The notes below the pieces were generated by a model. It saw nothing but the letters and a program-made list of their open reading frames with translations, did not search any database and was not told the DNA's origin. From a bacterium (GTDB lineage Bacteria; SM23-81; DAOVCL01), in NCBI GenBank assembly GCA_029932675.1, contig JAOZPP010000027.1, positions 1 to 38,641 on the forward strand: a stretch of DNA of 38,641 nt. The letters run 5' to 3'. Shown here piece after piece: positions 26,509 to 38,641 of this stretch. The stretch's first letter is position 1. The number at the start of each line of letters is the position of its first letter. A program made the translations under genes and the position numbers.

Positions 26509-28902
26509 CTATTTGAGCAGGATCATCCTCCGTGTCTCCATAAACCCTCCCGCTTGCAACCTGTAAAGATATACCCCTGAGCCCACATCCTTTGCATCCC
26601 AGGTTACAGCCTTATATCCAGGGGCTTGCTTCTCATCCACCAAGGTGACCACTTTCTCTCCCAAGATGTTGTAAACCTCCAGCCTGACATAGCAATCTTT
26701 AGGCAAGGTATACCTGATCTCCGTCATGGGGTTGAAGGGATTCGGGTAGTTCTGGGAGAGGGAAAAGCTCACAGGCAGTTCAACATTCCTATTGGCATAA
26801 ATGCCCGTAAATTTGCAACTGACCTCATCAGAGTACTCCCCTTCGTTCCCAGCAAAGTCAAAGGCAGAAATCCGATAGTAGTAAGTGCTGTCGTTGACAA
26901 CCTCTAAATCACTGTAAGCTGTATCTATGGTAGTCCCCAGCAGGTTTGAGCTATCTGGAGTGAAACCGCTTTCCCTCCCTCGATAAATGGCATAATAGCG
27001 GAAGTCCCCATCGGGGATTGCCCTCCAAATCAGATTTATGGAGGTATCCCCTGAGGCCACGGTTAGCCCTTGGGGCGCAGAGGGAGCAAGGTTGTCTACT
27101 GAATAGCCGCTGTCAGGCTTTGAATCCCAGAAGATGAATGGGTCAGAGGTGTGAGCAGAGACGAGGAAGTAGTGCCAGCCAGGTGTAGCTGAGCTCGAAT
27201 CGTATAGAGTCGGTGCCGTATAAGAGTAGTGGGCGAGATAGTGGGCTTGTTGGTTACCGATCCATTCCCAGTAAAAGGTTTTCCCTCCTTCCTTGATTAC
27301 CCGGTAGGCTGGGCCGTTGAAATCCGGGCCAACCTCGGCTGGTGAGATCTGCCTGGTCCCCTGGGGGATGAGTTTTCCATTAGGGAGGCTCCTCCAAATG
27401 GAATAATGGGTAACCACCTCCAGGGGAGAGATATCTGTGCCACTTCGAACCCAGCGGAGAGAAACTATCCCTCCCTGGTCATGAGGTACATCTCTGATGC
27501 TGGTGATTATCGGAAATTCACCAGTTACCCCATTGCTGAGGACCCTCTGGGCGTAGATGTCGCAGCCATGGCGATAGTCTTGCCAGGTGATGATTGCACC
27601 TCCGGCCCCGTCGGAGACAAGTTGGGGCTCTGATTGAGACCTAGCTGCGGTGCAGATAGGTACTCCATTGCTCTCCCACAGGACTGTGCCTGAGCCACTC
27701 ACCCTCTGAGCGTAGATGTGGTAGCCATGGCCGTTGCGATAGTCCTGCCAGGCAATGATTGCTCCACCGGTCCCGTCGGAGACAAGTTGAGGTTCTGATT
27801 GAGATCTGACTGCGGTGCAGATAGGTATCCCATTAGTGTCCCACAGAACTGTGCCTAAGGCATTCACCCTCTGGACGTAGATATCGTCATCATAGCCGTT
27901 GCGATGGTCTTGCCAGGTAATGATTGCTCCGCCGGTCCCGTCGGAGACAAGTTGAGGCTCTGATTGAGACCTAGCTGCGGTGCAGATGGATACTCCATTG
28001 GCGGTCCACAGAGGTGTGCCTGAGCCACTCACCCTTTGGGCATAAATATCGGCGGTGTCGCTGCGCTCATTGCTCCAGGTGATAATAGCACCCCCGGCCC
28101 CGTCAGAGATAAGTTGAGGATACCCTCCAAGTTTTGTGGAGATTGCCACTCCATTGGTATCCCATAAGATTGTGCCAGAGCTATCCACCCTTTGAGCGTA
28201 AATATGCGCAGTGTCGCTACGATGGTCATACCAAGTGACGATTGCACCTCCGGCCCCGTCAGGGATAAGTTGGGGATCTCTTTGATCCCTCGCTGCCGTG
28301 CAGATAGGTATTCCATTTCTCTCCCACAGAACTGTGCCTAAGCCACTCACCCTTTGGGCGTAAATATCGGCGGTATTGTCGCGATAGTCGCTCCAGGTAA
28401 TGATTGCACCTCCGGCCCCGTCAGGGATAAGTTGGGGATCTCCTTGATCCCTCGCTGCCGTGCAGATTGCTATCCCATTAGTTGTCCATCGCACTCTGCC
28501 CCAGGTATCTACCCTCTGGGCATAAATGTCCGCGGTGTCGCTGCGCTCATCGCGCCAAGTGATGATAGCCCCACCTGTCCCGTCAGGGATAAGTTGAGGA
28601 GAAGATTGCGTCCCTACTGCTGTGCAGATTGCTATTCCATTGGTATCCCACTGGATTATGCCCCAGGCATCTACCATTTGGACGTAGATGTCGCCGTAGC
28701 GATAAACATAGAGATAATCGCGCCAAGTGATGATAGCCCCACCTGTCCCGTCGGAGATAAGCTGGGGATATCCTTGATCCTCTGCTGCCGTGCAGATAGG
28801 TGTTCCACCCTCCATCCACTGAGCCAAGGAAACATTGGGTTGCCCCATAATCACCACTATTGCGATGAACGAAACAATCAAAAGCAAAAGAAATCGCGTC
28901 AT
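26509..28902 (-). CDS. Secreted repeat protein with FN3 and T9SS-like tail
   Basis: 797 aa. A signal peptide (FLLLLIVSFIAIVVIMGQPNVSLA) is followed by eight copies of a ~45-50-residue repeat built on ICTA..Q..PQL.SDG.GGAIITW.D.R...DIYAQRV...G..LW..NG (residues ~30-460), probably a beta-propeller or beta-sandwich array. A region with a YSIWRSLPNG block, an FN3-like domain (APSAPQGLTVASGDTSINLIW) and a C-terminal sorting tail (NYPNPFNPMTEIRYTLP ... RRMILLK) follow. Probably exported to the cell surface. No catalytic motif is seen, so a binding or structural role is likely. The repeats are well conserved in DNA. Coupled to a small upstream ORF. Confidence 0.85.
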   Translation of the reverse strand: MTRFLLLLIVSFIAIVVIMGQPNVSLAQWMEGGTPICTAAEDQGYPQLISDGTGGAIITWRDYLYVYRYGDIYVQMVDAWGIIQWDTNGIAICTAVGTQSSPQLIPDGTGGAIITWRDERSDTADIYAQRVDTWGRVRWTTNGIAICTAARDQGDPQLIPDGAGGAIITWSDYRDNTADIYAQRVSGLGTVLWERNGIPICTAARDQRDPQLIPDGAGGAIVTWYDHRSDTAHIYAQRVDSSGTILWDTNGVAISTKLGGYPQLISDGAGGAIITWSNERSDTADIYAQRVSGSGTPLWTANGVSICTAARSQSEPQLVSDGTGGAIITWQDHRNGYDDDIYVQRVNALGTVLWDTNGIPICTAVRSQSEPQLVSDGTGGAIIAWQDYRNGHGYHIYAQRVSGSGTVLWESNGVPICTAARSQSEPQLVSDGAGGAIITWQDYRHGCDIYAQRVLSNGVTGEFPIITSIRDVPHDQGGIVSLRWVRSGTDISPLEVVTHYSIWRSLPNGKLIPQGTRQISPAEVGPDFNGPAYRVIKEGGKTFYWEWIGNQQAHYLAHYSYTAPTLYDSSSATPGWHYFLVSAHTSDPFIFWDSKPDSGYSVDNLAPSAPQGLTVASGDTSINLIWRAIPDGDFRYYAIYRGRESGFTPDSSNLLGTTIDTAYSDLEVVNDSTYYYRISAFDFAGNEGEYSDEVSCKFTGIYANRNVELPVSFSLSQNYPNPFNPMTEIRYTLPKDCYVRLEVYNILGEKVVTLVDEKQAPGYKAVTWDAKDVGSGVYLYRLQAGGFMETRRMILLK

Positions 28903-32169: not shown

Positions 32170-33375
32170 TTATTTCAGCAGAATCATCTTCCTCGTCTGC
32201 ACGAAATCCCCGGCTCCGAAGGAGTCCGGAGTCCTTCGGACCTGAAGCCTGTAGAAGTAGATCCCACTGGGGGAGGAAGTTGCGTCCCACCTGACTGCCC
32301 TGTATCCAGCTTTCTGCTTTCCATCGACCAGAGTGGTTACCTTCTCACCGAGGGTGTTGTAGATCTCCACTTTAACCTGGCAATCCACCGGAAGAGTATA
32401 CTTGATTTCGGTAATCGGGTTGAAAGGATTGGGATAGTTTTGATTCAGGGAATATTCCTGAAAAGTTTGTCCTCCGGAACTACCAGGGGAGCCTTCACTA
32501 CCAACGGTAATATAGCCTTCTTTTGTTTTCGTGTGCGAAACTTCGCCATTTGTAACTGTCAATTTGATAGTATAACTTCCGGGCATTGTATAGGTATAAA
32601 CCGGATGCTGTTCTTTCGAATCTTCAACTCCATCGTTGTCGAAATCCCAACTCCAACTTGTTTCTCCAAACATCCCTATTAGCGACAAATCCACAAATTG
32701 AACTGTCAAAGGTGCAATACCCGTTGTTGTATCTGCGGAGAAATCGACCTCCAAAATTTGATCCCCCTCATGCCGCATATATGTTACCGTGTCATCAGTG
32801 ACATAGAATGTCCAGAAGTGGTTGCTTATGCAGCCGCTCATACAGTCTTCCCAACCCCTACGGAATGTATAGATGGAGAGACAAGAGTCGTCTATGGTTG
32901 CATATATATTATCACCATCACCGTAATAGTGATTTGGTTGTGCCCACCTCACTCCTTCTGCTACCGAATACATTGGTGAAAGACATTCTGGATTATAATG
33001 GAAAGGGAACTTCAAAACCAAGACCTTAATAAATGAAAGTGGCTCAATTTGGACAGGACCATATAGCGCGTTTAAACTGTCCAATCCGTGATACTCTCCA
33101 TTGATAAATTCCTCCCAAGCCTCATCAGTTAATCCAACAATAAGCTCACCTGGCACCCAGGGAGGGAAGACATGAATGAGCTCCATCCCAGGATAAAATT
33201 GACGAATGACTGCCAACTCGTTACTTATCCGTTCATAAAGCAAGGGTGGGGCTGATAATTCCCCGGAAACCTGCAGGGCCAAAATCTCGGCATCATCCCA
33301 TCCATCGGCAAGAGCGACGATACTTGTTGAAGATATGCCTATACTTAGAACTAAGAGAAAAATCATAGATCTCAT
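32170..33375 (-). CDS. Secreted PKD-domain protein with T9SS-like tail
   Basis: 401 aa. Signal peptide (MIFLLVLSIGISSTSIVALA), an N-terminal domain of ~200 residues without a known match (it has four Cys around CMSGC), then a PKD domain (EVDFSADTTTGIAPLTVQFVD ... WSWDFDNDGVEDS ... YTYTMPGSYTIKLTVTN), a Ser/Gly linker and a sorting tail (NYPNPFNPITEIKYTLP ... RKMILLK). GGAGGGGA precedes the ATG. Surface-located. In the tail a 9-residue insert VRRTPDSFG interrupts RLQ-AGDF, encoded by a palindromic DNA insertion. Confidence 0.85.
   Translation of the reverse strand: MRSMIFLLVLSIGISSTSIVALADGWDDAEILALQVSGELSAPPLLYERISNELAVIRQFYPGMELIHVFPPWVPGELIVGLTDEAWEEFINGEYHGLDSLNALYGPVQIEPLSFIKVLVLKFPFHYNPECLSPMYSVAEGVRWAQPNHYYGDGDNIYATIDDSCLSIYTFRRGWEDCMSGCISNHFWTFYVTDDTVTYMRHEGDQILEVDFSADTTTGIAPLTVQFVDLSLIGMFGETSWSWDFDNDGVEDSKEQHPVYTYTMPGSYTIKLTVTNGEVSHTKTKEGYITVGSEGSPGSSGGQTFQEYSLNQNYPNPFNPITEIKYTLPVDCQVKVEIYNTLGEKVTTLVDGKQKAGYRAVRWDATSSPSGIYFYRLQVRRTPDSFGAGDFVQTRKMILLK
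32215..32241. repeat. In-frame 27-bp palindromic insertion
   Basis: TCCGAAGGA and TCCTTCGGA arms (9 bp, perfect) flank a TCCGGA centre with two mismatching bases between. Length is divisible by three, so the frame is kept. The other two sorting tails in this window lack it. Confidence 0.6.
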
Positions 33376-34810: not shown

Positions 34811-35941
34811 TCACCCTTCAACGACTGGTTGTTCAGCCTCTTTGGGGTTTTGGAGGTCAAGCATCAAACAGATGATGCCAGCTAACCCGCTGTAAAGGCC
34901 AAGGCGCCAAAGCTTTATGATTGAGCCATGCTCAGCGAAGTCGGCGTAGTGGAAGGCATATTCTAACCAAGGCCCGCTGGGATCGATACGATTCAAGGAG
35001 AGCAAGGCGTAACTGACGCCCGCAGCCCCACAGCAGAGATGACCAAGGTGGTAATTGGTCTTGTGTATGCAGTATTCGCCGGTTGCCCTGGCGGTTTCAA
35101 GGAAAAGTGGATCCTTGTAAAGGTTGTAAGCAAGGGTCCAGAGGAGGATGAGGCCAGGGGCGCCGTTGCACCAACTATCCATATATCCCCTCTCATCCCT
35201 TTCATCAATGGGCCAACTTATACCATATTTATGCTTTCTGCCCGATTTAGCGTATTGCTTAAGGCCTGTAAGGACCCATTCCGGCAGGGGATAACCGGTT
35301 TCTTTAGACCAGAGGAGGAGTGCATAATAGTTACCAGCGCGCCCATGAGCAAATCCCAATTTGTGATTGTTAGGCCAGGGGACAACCCCATTAGAAACCT
35401 CGGCCGTTGCGGTCAAATCCTTTGCTATGGAATCGCCATACTTCTTTAAACTCGCCTCCCCTGTCTCCCGGTACAATAATGCACAACCAACTAACCGCCC
35501 TGCAATCCCTTGGAGGAATTCTTGCTGAGTTAGCCTCTTGCTTTCTGGAGCAGTGTAATTCTCCAAGGCCTTCTCTAAGATAGGCCGATCGTCCTGCGCA
35601 TAAGCAATAAGTGCTCTGACGAAATCTATCCCCCTGTTCCCGAATAATAACGAGTCCTTTACTTGGATTTCCACGGTCTCCATAGGTTTTTCGGGGAGTT
35701 TAATGATTCGCTCATCTTCTGGTGCAGCAATTACGTGATCGATCCAAAATCGAGCATAATCGAGCCATTTCGCTTCGTCCAAGATACACGCCGCTTTCCA
35801 AAAGGTGTAGGCAATACCAGCTCCCCCTGCATATAGGGAACGATAAGGCGGCGCATGTACCAAACACATGTTCTTGAATGAATACTGGGCAAGTTCCTCA
35901 ATCCCCTTCATTGCTTTTGATAAAGCCCGCGATTTAGTCAT
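34811..35941 (-). CDS. LanC-like cyclase with Cys-Cys-Cys zinc site
   Basis: 376 aa, an alpha-toroid protein. GG-motifs occur at YAGGAGIAYTFWKA, GIAGRLVGCALLY, FAHGRAGNYYALLL (H199), SWCNGAPGLILLW (C258) and HLCCGAAGVSYALL (C303, C304). In classical LanC the third motif is CHG with a His ligand; here it is CCG, as in the Cys-Cys-Cys variants known from some class II synthetases such as ProcM. H199 matches the catalytic His. It would add Cys thiols to dehydrated Ser/Thr. It follows the kinase by 22 bp, with AAAGGTG ahead of ATG. No kinase or lyase is fused to it. Confidence 0.8.
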   Translation of the reverse strand: MTKSRALSKAMKGIEELAQYSFKNMCLVHAPPYRSLYAGGAGIAYTFWKAACILDEAKWLDYARFWIDHVIAAPEDERIIKLPEKPMETVEIQVKDSLLFGNRGIDFVRALIAYAQDDRPILEKALENYTAPESKRLTQQEFLQGIAGRLVGCALLYRETGEASLKKYGDSIAKDLTATAEVSNGVVPWPNNHKLGFAHGRAGNYYALLLWSKETGYPLPEWVLTGLKQYAKSGRKHKYGISWPIDERDERGYMDSWCNGAPGLILLWTLAYNLYKDPLFLETARATGEYCIHKTNYHLGHLCCGAAGVSYALLSLNRIDPSGPWLEYAFHYADFAEHGSIIKLWRLGLYSGLAGIICLMLDLQNPKEAEQPVVEG

Positions 35942-35963
35942 AGATCGACACCTTTATTCTGCC

Positions 35964-37259
35964 TTAGGAATCAAGGCCGCTGTCCTTAAATGGGCTAAAA
36001 TCTGCCTTTGGAGGCAGTGGTATTGCCCTCAGTGCTTCCAGAAACTCAGCCATAGAAGAGAAGCGTTTCCCCTTTTCCTTTTCCAATGCCTTATGTAAAA
36101 CCGCTTCCAACTCCGGCCATGGGGTGCGTTCACACTCCTCAAAACCCTTTGGTTTTTCGTTTAGAATGCTTTTCATATATTCATTCCGGCGAAAATTCCA
36201 TGTATAGGGCATTCGCTTTGTAAAAAGGTAGAAGAGTATCACTCCGAGGGAGTATATTTCCCCGGCGACCGAACCCCAAAGGCCTTTTCGGCCCTCAAGG
36301 ACGTGGCGCACATATTCGGGGGGCATATACAGTATCACACCGCCTTCTTCATAGTTCTCCTCTTCCTTGATTTCAATAGGGCGAGTTAGGCCGAAATCAA
36401 TCAGACAAACATTGCCATTTCTAATTAGGAAGTTGTCGGCATGAACATCACCATGAAGGTAGCCAGCCACATGAACGGCCTTTAGGGCCTCTGCACACTG
36501 AATGGCAAGCTTCATTAGCTTCCTGTCCGTTGCTTTGAAATCCATTTCATGGGCATAACTGATAACAGGAGGGCCATCGACCCAGTCGAGAATACCGTAT
36601 ATGCGTCCCTCATATATCCCTTGTTCCCATAGCTTGACAACGTTAGGATGGTTGACATACCCCATAACTTCAAATTCGTGATTTAAACGCCGCGTTATCC
36701 TCTCTTTCATCTCCTTGTTTGGAAACTTATTTTGCGCAATCTTCAGAGCCCTAAATTCACCTGTGCTCCTGTTTTCAATCTTGTAGATTTCGGAATCCAC
36801 GAGGCAATGTATGTTCTCCCTGATTACGTAGCCAAGCCACTCCTCACCTTCTTTGAAACTGGGTTCTACGGATTCAGCCGATGAGATTTGCTCATCGCCG
36901 ACATCAACAAGAAAGCTGTTGTGGATCAAACTCCTCACCAGCTTCCTAAGTTTAGGATCGAGTTCGTCGCGATTGAGGTTTCTTGACTTCGTAAAATATT
37001 CTAAGATATCATTGTAACTCGCCCCCCTTCTTCCGAACGCTTGCAGCACATCAACTACATCCTTATTGACGATCTTGGGGAGGGCCCGTACCCTCTTGCG
37101 TTCGAGAGCAAAGTACCCCTGGGGGATTTTCCCCTCAGGATAGATTTCCTTTAGCAAAGCCTCCGGCAGCTTGCTAACTGGGGTAATGATGACGTCCTTC
37201 GCCAGGCGTCTGAGGCGATTTAAGTCTATCTTTATATCAGCATTAAGCGGATCTCTCAT
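35964..37259 (-). CDS. Ser/Thr kinase with N-terminal winged-helix-like domain
   Basis: 431 aa. Residues ~48-125 (VNKDVVDVLQAFGRRGASYNDI ... LVRSLIHNSFLVDVGD) look like a PqqD/RRE-type winged helix and resemble residues ~40-110 of the upstream gene product. Residues ~140-415 are a full protein kinase: ALKIA with K173, HEFEV with the alpha-C Glu, HGDVHADNFLI (D271, N276), DFG D288 and YMPPE. Catalytic residues are all present. In the context of a LanC-like and a HopA1-like gene it probably phosphorylates Ser/Thr of a precursor peptide before elimination. Overlaps the upstream gene by 17 bp. Confidence 0.85.
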   Translation of the reverse strand: MRDPLNADIKIDLNRLRRLAKDVIITPVSKLPEALLKEIYPEGKIPQGYFALERKRVRALPKIVNKDVVDVLQAFGRRGASYNDILEYFTKSRNLNRDELDPKLRKLVRSLIHNSFLVDVGDEQISSAESVEPSFKEGEEWLGYVIRENIHCLVDSEIYKIENRSTGEFRALKIAQNKFPNKEMKERITRRLNHEFEVMGYVNHPNVVKLWEQGIYEGRIYGILDWVDGPPVISYAHEMDFKATDRKLMKLAIQCAEALKAVHVAGYLHGDVHADNFLIRNGNVCLIDFGLTRPIEIKEEENYEEGGVILYMPPEYVRHVLEGRKGLWGSVAGEIYSLGVILFYLFTKRMPYTWNFRRNEYMKSILNEKPKGFEECERTPWPELEAVLHKALEKEKGKRFSSMAEFLEALRAIPLPPKADFSPFKDSGLDS

Positions 37260-38457
37260 CTCTTTGCCCTGAAGGGGTGAACTCTATACTCCAATCATCG
37301 CTCAAAGGACGCCATCTAAGACTATCAACTCCAATAAGTTGCATATAAGCATGAATATATTCCAGGGGGTTTTTTGTTCCATCCCGTCGCGCCCCCTGGA
37401 TCGCCAGGGCAAGCTTGGTTGTAATGTAGAGACGCCAGCTATATGATTCCCCAATCTTGTGGGGAGGATCGACCCCCATGGAAACTATGGGATTCTTGGG
37501 GTTTACCTGGAAGCTAAAGGGTACTCCCTGGGGATCAAGGGAGATTAACTGTTCCGACATAAGGGAGGCGAAATCAAAGGCTTGTTTGTATTCGGAGAAG
37601 TAGACCAAGAGTTTGTCTGGGCGGAGGATACCGGCTAAATGCCGGCCGATCTTCATGAAATGTGCCCCAGACTCAGCAACAGCCCCCCTGACAATTTGAA
37701 AAACACGGGGAAGGTCCTGAGGAAGTGGGCTGAAATAGACCTTGTAGCTGGGTTTATCCTTAGGATGTTTCCTCTTCTTAAAATCCCAGGATCTCCAATA
37801 TAGATCAAACGTATCCGGTTCGCCCTTTTCATCTAATCTAATTTGTCGAGACCTAATGGAATTAGGCATACCCTGCCAAGTACCGTCATCCCGTAGGTGG
37901 AGATATGCAGCCAATGCCTTGCTATCAGGGAGGTGTCTCTTCCAACGTCTGTTGATTGGGATGCAGTTGAGGTTGTAAAGGTAGGTGGCTAAATCCTGGG
38001 GGGTGGTAAGTGCTGAATTGAACGCAAGATGGATACCCCTCTCCGAAATGGTTTGGATATAAGCCCTTTTGTCACCTGAATAAGCTAAGTTCTTGGAGGA
38101 AGTGAGGACACGGTTAACAGCTTCCACGCCAGAAATAAATTCCCCATCGGCTAAGACCTGAAGCACACTGTCAAGAACCAGCCGAATTATATACTTTCTC
38201 CTTTCCTCCTTAGTCCCCCTATCGAACTTCTGGAAGGCGTCTCTCAATCTTATGGGTCGGGAGAATTGACGCAAAAAATCTGCGAGATCTCGGTTGACCG
38301 CCTTGACAGTTAATTTAGCCTCCCGGGGAGCATGGACGAAACCATACAAAGCTTTATTACTTACCAGGTGCTGAAAGCGCTTCTTCTGCTCATCAGTTAG
38401 ATCTTCAAAAGGAGTGATTGAATAGAGGGGATTGAGTCGGAAAATCTTATCAAACAT
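37243..38457 (-). CDS. HopA1-like putative phospho-Ser/Thr lyase
   Basis: 404 aa. N-terminal winged-helix-like domain (VNRDLADFLRQFSRPIRL ... VLQVLADGEFISG, residues ~50-110) shared with the kinase. The C-terminal half has SYKVYFSPLPQDLPRVF, HFMKIG (K269), LRPDKLLVYF, VPFSFQV, SMGVDPP (328-332) and YSWRLYITTKLA. The order lysine - R.D.x.VxY - GV..P - S.R is that of HopA1-family proteins, used as lyases in class V lanthipeptide and thioviridamide-type pathways. I infer elimination of phosphate from modified Ser/Thr. It is the first gene of the operon. The assignment is by motif order, not by alignment. Confidence 0.5.
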   Translation of the reverse strand: MFDKIFRLNPLYSITPFEDLTDEQKKRFQHLVSNKALYGFVHAPREAKLTVKAVNRDLADFLRQFSRPIRLRDAFQKFDRGTKEERRKYIIRLVLDSVLQVLADGEFISGVEAVNRVLTSSKNLAYSGDKRAYIQTISERGIHLAFNSALTTPQDLATYLYNLNCIPINRRWKRHLPDSKALAAYLHLRDDGTWQGMPNSIRSRQIRLDEKGEPDTFDLYWRSWDFKKRKHPKDKPSYKVYFSPLPQDLPRVFQIVRGAVAESGAHFMKIGRHLAGILRPDKLLVYFSEYKQAFDFASLMSEQLISLDPQGVPFSFQVNPKNPIVSMGVDPPHKIGESYSWRLYITTKLALAIQGARRDGTKNPLEYIHAYMQLIGVDSLRWRPLSDDWSIEFTPSGQRDERSA

Positions 38458-38578
38458 GAGGTCAATTATCCTTTTGTCAAACTAAAGCAAGCAAGATGCT
38501 CTTGGTTTAGGCGGATCCCGCATCTCTTTGGATCTCTGATGGTTATTGGGCTTCATGGGGACCTTGTTTGAACTTAGC

Positions 38579-38641
38579 TCCTAACGTTCCCTGGGGTCTC
38601 TCCCGCTGGCGCTCCGCAATCCTCCGCCAGTTAGGATTGCT
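38579..38641. repeat. Inverted repeats at the right edge
   Basis: TCCTAAC (38579-38585) and GTTAGGA (38630-38636) are exact complements 58 bp apart; GCAATCCT (38616-38623) and AGGATTGC (38633-38640) form an 8-bp stem; CTGGCG/CGCCAG pair between. Overall size and CTAAC/GTTAG ends resemble an attC-type or small inverted-repeat unit, but no strict consensus box is met and the window ends here. Confidence 0.4.

What the first reader, a model, noticed from the sequence alone, without database searches (positions are those of the whole stretch)
34811..38457. Lanthipeptide-synthetase activities split over three separate genes with an unusual combination
A HopA1-like putative lyase, a Hanks-type Ser/Thr kinase with an intact catalytic core and a LanC-like cyclase follow one another with overlaps or tiny gaps. 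Class III and IV synthetases fuse an OspF-like lyase, a kinase and a LanC domain; class V pairs a HopA1-like protein with an aminoglycoside-phosphotransferase-like kinase. Here a HopA1-like protein goes with a protein-kinase-type kinase and a free LanC. I know of no described class with exactly this set. The enzymatic roles are inferred from motifs.
Basis: partly seen in the sequence, partly recalled or inferred. Interest (0 to 1): 0.88.

Follow-up and report, generated by a model that had tools for sequence, protein, structure and literature searches.

The report
Split hybrid class IV/V lanthipeptide synthetase
Three adjacent genes encode a kinase, a phosphate-removing lyase and a ring-closing enzyme that most likely act together on a small peptide, and they belong to an apparently unnamed enzyme family found in scattered members of about ten bacterial phyla, next to its own kind of peptide gene.

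Summary
The trio is real and at the stated coordinates. The 404-aa protein has no sequence match to PF17914, but its predicted structure (pLDDT 86) matches HopA1, the class V lyase LxmY, class III/IV lyase domains and OspF/SpvC. All catalytic positions are kept. The kinase is Hanks-type and the LanC keeps its Zn ligands. I found 30 relatives in about ten phyla. Wherever the sequence is readable (28/28), the lyase gene neighbours a kinase-LanC fusion. In 22/30 a leave-one-out leader model ranks first an ORF just upstream of the lyase: a Cys/Thr/Ser-rich precursor with leader 'FxVKDLMI' and a C-terminal helix. Lyase and kinase share a homologous N-terminal domain that resembles an RRE (suggestive only). 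So this combines a class IV-like kinase-LanC with a class V-like separate lyase; the window carries a split version. No held paper or NCBIfam model describes the set. The window's own precursor is not visible: the contig ends 184 bp upstream, in a dispersed repeat. Lanthionine formation is inferred, not shown. Only open-access literature was checked.

The parts
37243..38457 (-). HopA1/LanY-type phospho-Ser/Thr lyase homologue, 404 aa (P0003)
   Evidence: AF2 model pLDDT 85.6. Foldseek top hits HopA1 4rsx/4rsw, LxmY 9dk1-3, CuvL, ThurKC, SpvC/OspF. Invariant K239-x-Y241, K269, RPDK 279-282, Y286 across 28 relatives, with spacing K219-R229-Y236 identical to CaoY.
37303..37860 (-). lyase catalytic domain (about residues 200-385)
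   Evidence: invariant residues and alignment
38104..38457 (-). N-terminal domain of the lyase, topology E-E-H-E-E-H-H-H-E, homologous to the kinase N-domain; possible RRE
   Evidence: hhalign prob 94-95%, E 7e-8 to 1e-7 against the kinase N-domain; DSSP
35964..37259 (-). Hanks-type Ser/Thr kinase with N-terminal accessory domain, 431 aa (P0002)
   Evidence: PF00069 3.8e-28. AF2 model pLDDT 87, Foldseek best PknB/CaMKII. K173, E195, H269xD271, N276, D288FG conserved in the family.
36882..37259 (-). N-terminal accessory (wHTH, PqqD/RRE-like) domain of the kinase
   Evidence: Topology. Best PDB profile hit is TbiB1 lasso RRE, E 0.54 (0.096 for the joint profile). One family member hits PqqD at 0.014. 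Suggestive only.
36024..36842 (-). kinase catalytic domain (about residues 140-412)
34811..35941 (-). LanC-like Zn-dependent cyclase, 376 aa (P0001)
   Evidence: PF05147 6.7e-40. Zn ligands C258, C303, C304 and H199 conserved.
38560..38641 (.). dispersed repeat at the contig end, upstream of the operon, where relatives carry the precursor gene
   Evidence: about 20 further matches in the same genome at E<=1

Best explanation
The trio is the synthetase of a ribosomal, lanthipeptide-type natural product. The Hanks-type kinase phosphorylates Ser/Thr in the core of a precursor peptide. The separate HopA1/LanY-fold lyase eliminates the phosphate to give Dha/Dhb. The Zn-dependent LanC adds Cys thiols to form (methyl)lanthionine rings. 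In relatives, the N-terminal domain shared by lyase and kinase would bind the N-terminal leader 'FxVKDLM[IV]' of the precursor, bringing both enzymes to one substrate. The window carries a probably derived, domain-boundary split of a kinase-LanC fusion that all readable relatives have. Shown here: gene order, predicted folds, conserved active sites, conservation of the lyase/kinase-LanC pair across phyla, and a conserved precursor-like gene upstream of the lyase in relatives. Inferred: all enzymatic steps, the leader-binding role and the thioether product. Not found: the window's own precursor.
For: The lyase fold is supported by structure search, with CaoY positions R187/K219/R229/Y236 matched by K239/K269/R279/Y286. 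Kinase and LanC active-site residues are conserved in 29 sequences. A scan with the lyase profile alone gave 28 loci, all with a neighbouring kinase-LanC fusion where readable. The reverse query with the fusion returned the same two plasmids. In leave-one-out tests, the leader HMM's top six-frame segment lies 15-260 bp upstream of the lyase gene in 22 of 30 loci. The precursors carry 3-19 Cys and 6-42 Ser/Thr. In Cupriavidus the same N-domain is also fused to a 2OG-Fe(II) oxygenase, as expected of a substrate-binding module.
Against: No precursor was found in the window or by pattern or profile in its genome; the contig ends in a repeat. No conserved exporter or protease lies next to the cassettes, unlike typical lanthipeptide clusters. 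The RRE assignment rests on weak hits (E 0.014-0.5). No chemistry has been shown. The window's lyase is a long branch, at most about 30% identical to its relatives.
Confidence: 0.8

Rival explanations
1. It is an ordinary class V (subgroup with LanC) lanthipeptide system, i.e. LanK + LanY + LanC, that has merely diverged.
For: Same three activities in separate genes; LxmY and HopA1 are the nearest folds; class V with stand-alone LanC exists.
Against: The kinase is Hanks-type (PF00069 99 bits against APH 26 bits; LxmK model NF038156 11 bits against a cut-off of 315). In relatives it is fused to LanC. The lyase misses PF17914 in 26 of 28 members and reaches only E 0.007 at best in two. Both proteins have an N-terminal domain; for class II-V enzymes PMC10604976 states that no RRE is identifiable.
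Confidence: 0.12
2. It is a split class IV (LanL) synthetase whose lyase domain simply became a separate gene.
For: The kinase-LanC fusions match the LanL model NF038150 over kinase + LanC at up to 2e-49; the cyclase is Zn-type.
Against: Scores are 135-168 bits against a cut-off of 650, and the match starts only after the lyase part. The lyase is nearer HopA1/LxmY than CuvL by Foldseek E-value (1.9e-7 and 1.1e-5 against 1.5e-4), and has Y241 where OspF/LanKC/L have the catalytic His106.
Confidence: 0.2
3. It is a regulatory or detoxification module acting on cellular proteins (phospho-elimination followed by thiol addition, like eukaryotic LANCL), not on a peptide natural product.
For: No exporter or protease is conserved nearby; no precursor is visible in the window; LanC-type enzymes in eukarya act intermolecularly (PMC9934072, abstract).
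Against: A Cys/Ser/Thr-rich precursor-like gene with a conserved leader sits just upstream of the lyase in at least 22 relatives, some with repeated cores (L005, L024, L028).
Confidence: 0.08
4. In this particular genome the cassette is a decaying remnant: repeat inserted upstream, precursor lost, fusion broken. (Compatible with the best explanation for the family as a whole.)
For: Dispersed repeat at the upstream edge; split fusion; no precursor found in the genome.
Against: All active-site residues are intact in all three proteins; genes overlap or nearly abut with no internal stops; the split lies at the linker between domains.
Confidence: 0.2

Closest known systems
Class V lanthipeptide dehydratase LanK/LanY (lexapeptide LxmKY, cacaoidin CaoKY), with or without stand-alone LanC (SmoC)
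   Same: Separate HopA1-fold lyase, separate kinase, optional LanC; equivalent catalytic residues (K269=K219, R279=R229, Y286=Y236 of CaoY).
   Different: Hanks-type rather than APH-type kinase; kinase fused to LanC in all readable relatives; Lys rather than Arg at the CaoY R187 position; extra N-terminal domain on both proteins; different precursors; found far outside Actinobacteria.
Class IV synthetase LanL (VenL, CuvL)
   Same: Protein-kinase-type kinase and Zn-dependent LanC in one chain (in relatives); pSer/pThr lyase fold.
   Different: Lyase is a separate gene of HopA1/LanY type with an N-terminal domain; Tyr in place of catalytic His; far below the LanL curated score.
Class III LanKC (ThurKC) and class VI LanKCb
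   Same: Lyase, kinase and cyclase activities together.
   Different: Single polypeptide; the class III cyclase lacks Zn ligands, which are present here.
Beta-bithionins (kintamdin KinC/KinD) and thioamitides (TvaC/TvaD)
   Same: HopA1-like lyase plus separate kinase as a two-component dehydratase.
   Different: No LanC; flavoprotein/kinase-homologue cyclisation instead.

Membership tests
HopA1 / LanY (PF17914) | match to the PF17914 profile | tested here: not met
   no hit for P0003; 2 of 28 relatives, best E 0.007
HopA1 / LanY / OspF phospholyase fold | fold and catalytic Lys/Arg/Tyr positions | tested here: met
   hhalign to a class V-type LanY (L037) E 7e-4 over the catalytic segment, though probability only 26%
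Class V lanthipeptide synthetase | APH-type kinase LanK (PF01636 / NF038156) | tested here: not met
   best families are Pkinase (99 bits) and PknB-type folds; PF01636 26 bits is marginally over its cut-off; NF038156 11 of 315 bits
Class V lanthipeptide synthetase | separate lyase gene, optional stand-alone LanC | tested here: met
   window gene layout; class V layout from PMC12328550
Class IV LanL | lyase-kinase-LanC in one polypeptide, NF038150 above cut-off | tested here: not met
   window: 3 genes, kinase 46 bits and LanC 85 bits; fusions 135-168 bits against 650
Class IV LanL | Zn-binding LanC | tested here: met
   C258, C303, C304, H199 by sequence
Class III LanKC | single chain, LanC without Zn ligands | tested here: not met
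Lanthipeptide system in general | cognate precursor with Ser/Thr and Cys | tested here: inconclusive
   met in relatives (22 of 30 by leave-one-out); not found in the window or its genome
Lanthipeptide system in general | (Me)Lan in the product | not testable with these tools
   needs expression and mass spectrometry
RRE (PqqD fold) on lyase and kinase | PqqD-type wHTH that binds the leader | tested here: inconclusive
   right topology, weak hits to TbiB1 (0.096/0.54), 8hci RiPP recognition protein (1.3) and PqqD (0.014); binding untested

The most novel reading that the evidence does not exclude
A further class of lanthipeptide synthetase, found in about ten phyla: a two-component system of RRE-HopA1 lyase plus RRE-kinase-LanC, dedicated to precursors with an N-terminal 'KDLM' leader and a C-terminal helical follower. 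The window would be its first fully split three-gene form.
Probability: 0.6. Interest if true: 0.75.

Novelty: new variant of a known kind. Interest (0 to 1): 0.64.

Why it matters
It would add a recognisable architecture, with its own precursor family, to lanthipeptide genome mining. The lyase and precursors match no curated Pfam or NCBIfam family and the fusion falls far below the class cut-offs, so existing tools probably miss it. It links class IV (kinase-LanC) and class V (HopA1 lyase), which bears on how these synthetases evolved. The window's naturally split form gives free kinase, lyase and cyclase for biochemistry. The paired N-domains would be a testable exception to the reported lack of RREs in class II-V enzymes.

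Tried and rejected
Single-protein scan of genome contigs with P0003 found nothing; plasmid tblastn then gave two seeds and their alignment opened up the family. Viral contigs: no relatives. Precursor search in the window with a leader HMM (best E 0.68), by DNA pattern in the whole genome (the single exact match lies in a non-precursor context) and by precursor profile (no match) all failed. The 32-aa open frame at the contig end (38543-38641) was considered as a precursor tail and rejected, because 38560-38641 is a dispersed repeat. Assembly frameshift as the cause of the split was considered and rejected: the kinase ends in its own TAA and the LanC frame has a TAA just upstream of its ATG, so two stops separate them. 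Neighbour clustering for a conserved exporter or protease found none. Papers on class VI, class VII and kinase-cyclase combinations: no described class with this set in the held open-access library.

Full report
The observation. Three genes lie head to tail on the - strand at the right edge of the window: a 404-aa protein (37243-38457), a 431-aa kinase (35964-37259, overlapping the first by 17 nt) and a 376-aa LanC-like protein (34811-35941, 22-nt gap). The window is a whole contig of 38,641 bp, so only 184 bp upstream of the first gene are known. Those end in an ~80-bp repeat with about 20 further matches in the same genome.

Identity of the parts. LanC: PF05147 at 6.7e-40, with Zn ligands C258, C303, C304 and the conserved H199. 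Kinase: PF00069 at 3.8e-28; K173, E195, H269-x-D271, N276 and D288-F-G are intact; an AlphaFold2 model (pLDDT 87) matches PknB and CaMKII best. It is therefore a protein kinase and not an aminoglycoside-phosphotransferase-type kinase. PF01636 also scores 26 bits, slightly over its cut-off, against 99 for Pkinase, and the class V LxmK model gets 11 of 315 bits. The 404-aa protein has no Pfam, NCBIfam or PDB sequence match. Its model (pLDDT 85.6, pTM 0.84) gives a clear Foldseek list: HopA1 4rsx/4rsw, the lexapeptide dehydratase LxmKY, CuvL (class IV), ThurKC (class III), SpvC and OspF. CaoY residues R187, K219, R229 and Y236, the first three tested by mutation (PMC9486802), correspond to K239, K269, R279 and Y286. 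The two downstream spacings (10 and 7) are identical. The position of the OspF/LanL catalytic His106 is an invariant Tyr (Y241). All these are invariant in 28 sequences of the family.

Relatives. Plasmid tblastn gave two distant homologues, in Paenibacillus peoriae and Cupriavidus oxalaticus. With their alignment, a scan of 84,980 species genomes gave 28 loci: Acidobacteriota, Actinomycetota, Bacteroidota, Pseudomonadota, Gemmatimonadota, Nitrospirota, Elusimicrobiota, Eremiobacterota and one Nitrososphaerales MAG (a bin, so possibly contamination). With the Paenibacillus plasmid this makes about ten phyla. The family is rare: 1 of 386 sampled genomes, the window's own, and none of the three other held genomes of the window's phylum.

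Association. In every locus with enough sequence (28 of 28; L021 ends after the lyase and L013 within the kinase), the lyase gene neighbours a protein in which an N-terminal domain, a kinase and LanC are fused. It is immediately downstream except in the two Cupriavidus loci, where the fusion lies on the opposite strand with an oxygenase gene between. L015 and L022 have a broken or shortened LanC part. The query was the lyase alone, so the association is independent of the search. Searching with the fusion returned the same two plasmids. Only the window has kinase and LanC as separate genes, cut at the linker with a stop in each frame. In the lyase tree the window pairs with Elusimicrobiota L019 (99/97, but both are long branches and the output warns of this) inside a group whose other members are all fused. 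The split is therefore probably derived.

Precursors. Just upstream of the lyase most relatives carry an ORF with a leader of the type 'M-x-F-x-[VI]-K-D-L-M-[IV]-x-[IV]' (or 'MAFRAKxLRVQLPCG' in five loci), a core rich in Cys, Thr and Ser, often repeated, and a C-terminal helix-like stretch 'LKxQLxxALxEVxxxE'. As a test, a leader HMM built without the locus in question ranked this ORF first among 76-391 six-frame segments in 22 of 30 loci, 15-260 bp upstream on the same strand. Four more (L026, L030, L032, L033) are visible by eye, L005 has a different repeated precursor, L020 has none that I could see, and L017 and L029 are cut by contig ends. No exporter or protease is conserved in the neighbourhood.

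N-terminal domains. The first ~120 residues of the lyase and of the kinase have the same predicted topology and are homologous by profile-profile comparison (prob 94-95%, E 7e-8 to 1e-7). In Cupriavidus a third copy is fused to a 2OG-Fe(II) oxygenase. The only RiPP-related leads are weak but point one way: the lasso-peptide RRE TbiB1 is the best PDB hit of the kinase-side profile (E 0.54; 0.096 for the joint profile, below several repeat-protein artefacts), a 'RiPP recognition protein' appears for the lyase side (1.3), and one member hits PqqD at 0.014. I read it as a leader-binding domain, with moderate confidence.

Mechanism (inferred). Kinase phosphorylates core Ser/Thr; lyase eliminates phosphate with K269 as base, Y286 and K239 assisting and R279 holding the phosphate (by analogy with CaoY/SpvC); LanC adds Cys thiols. 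The shared N-domains would bring both enzymes to the leader.

Comparison. The present family shares its lyase with class V and its kinase-LanC with class IV, fails the curated tests of both and has its own precursors. PMC10604976 states that class II-V enzymes lack an identifiable RRE. I found no description of the set in the held open-access papers, but subscription papers could not be checked.

Verdict. A real, conserved, apparently unnamed variant of lanthipeptide-type biosynthesis. The window holds an unusual three-gene form whose own precursor is out of sight.

Noticed in passing
L006:12993-14066 and L025:8936-10069: In Cupriavidus the system's N-terminal domain is fused to a 2OG-Fe(II) oxygenase (PF13640, 2.7e-12), suggesting a third tailoring enzyme guided by the same module.
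   Followed up: partly
L006:7339-11420: A full-length class I LanB dehydratase (PF04738 3.5e-136, PF14028 1.1e-53) and a Cupin_8 protein sit directly upstream of the Cupriavidus cassette, so two different dehydration chemistries may act in one cluster.
   Followed up: no
window 38560-38641: A dispersed ~80-bp repeat with about 20 further matches in the same genome ends the contig.
   Followed up: partly
L005:11014-11766: Paenibacillus precursor with three near-identical units, two carrying 'NDCGITCLASCGLFSVGG' and one a close variant, not of the KDLM leader type.
   Followed up: partly
window 26509-28902 and 32170-33375: Secreted proteins with Por_Secre_tail (type IX secretion) C-terminal signals; the first has several repeats of a 'GTPICTAARSQSEPQLVSDG'-like unit.
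   Followed up: no
L015:9101-11568: The kinase-LanC fusion of Amaricoccus appears broken by a frameshift within LanC.
   Followed up: no
L011 (Nitrososphaerales MAG): A cassette with a duplicated-leader precursor in a contig binned as archaeal; either transfer to an archaeon or a binning error.
   Followed up: no
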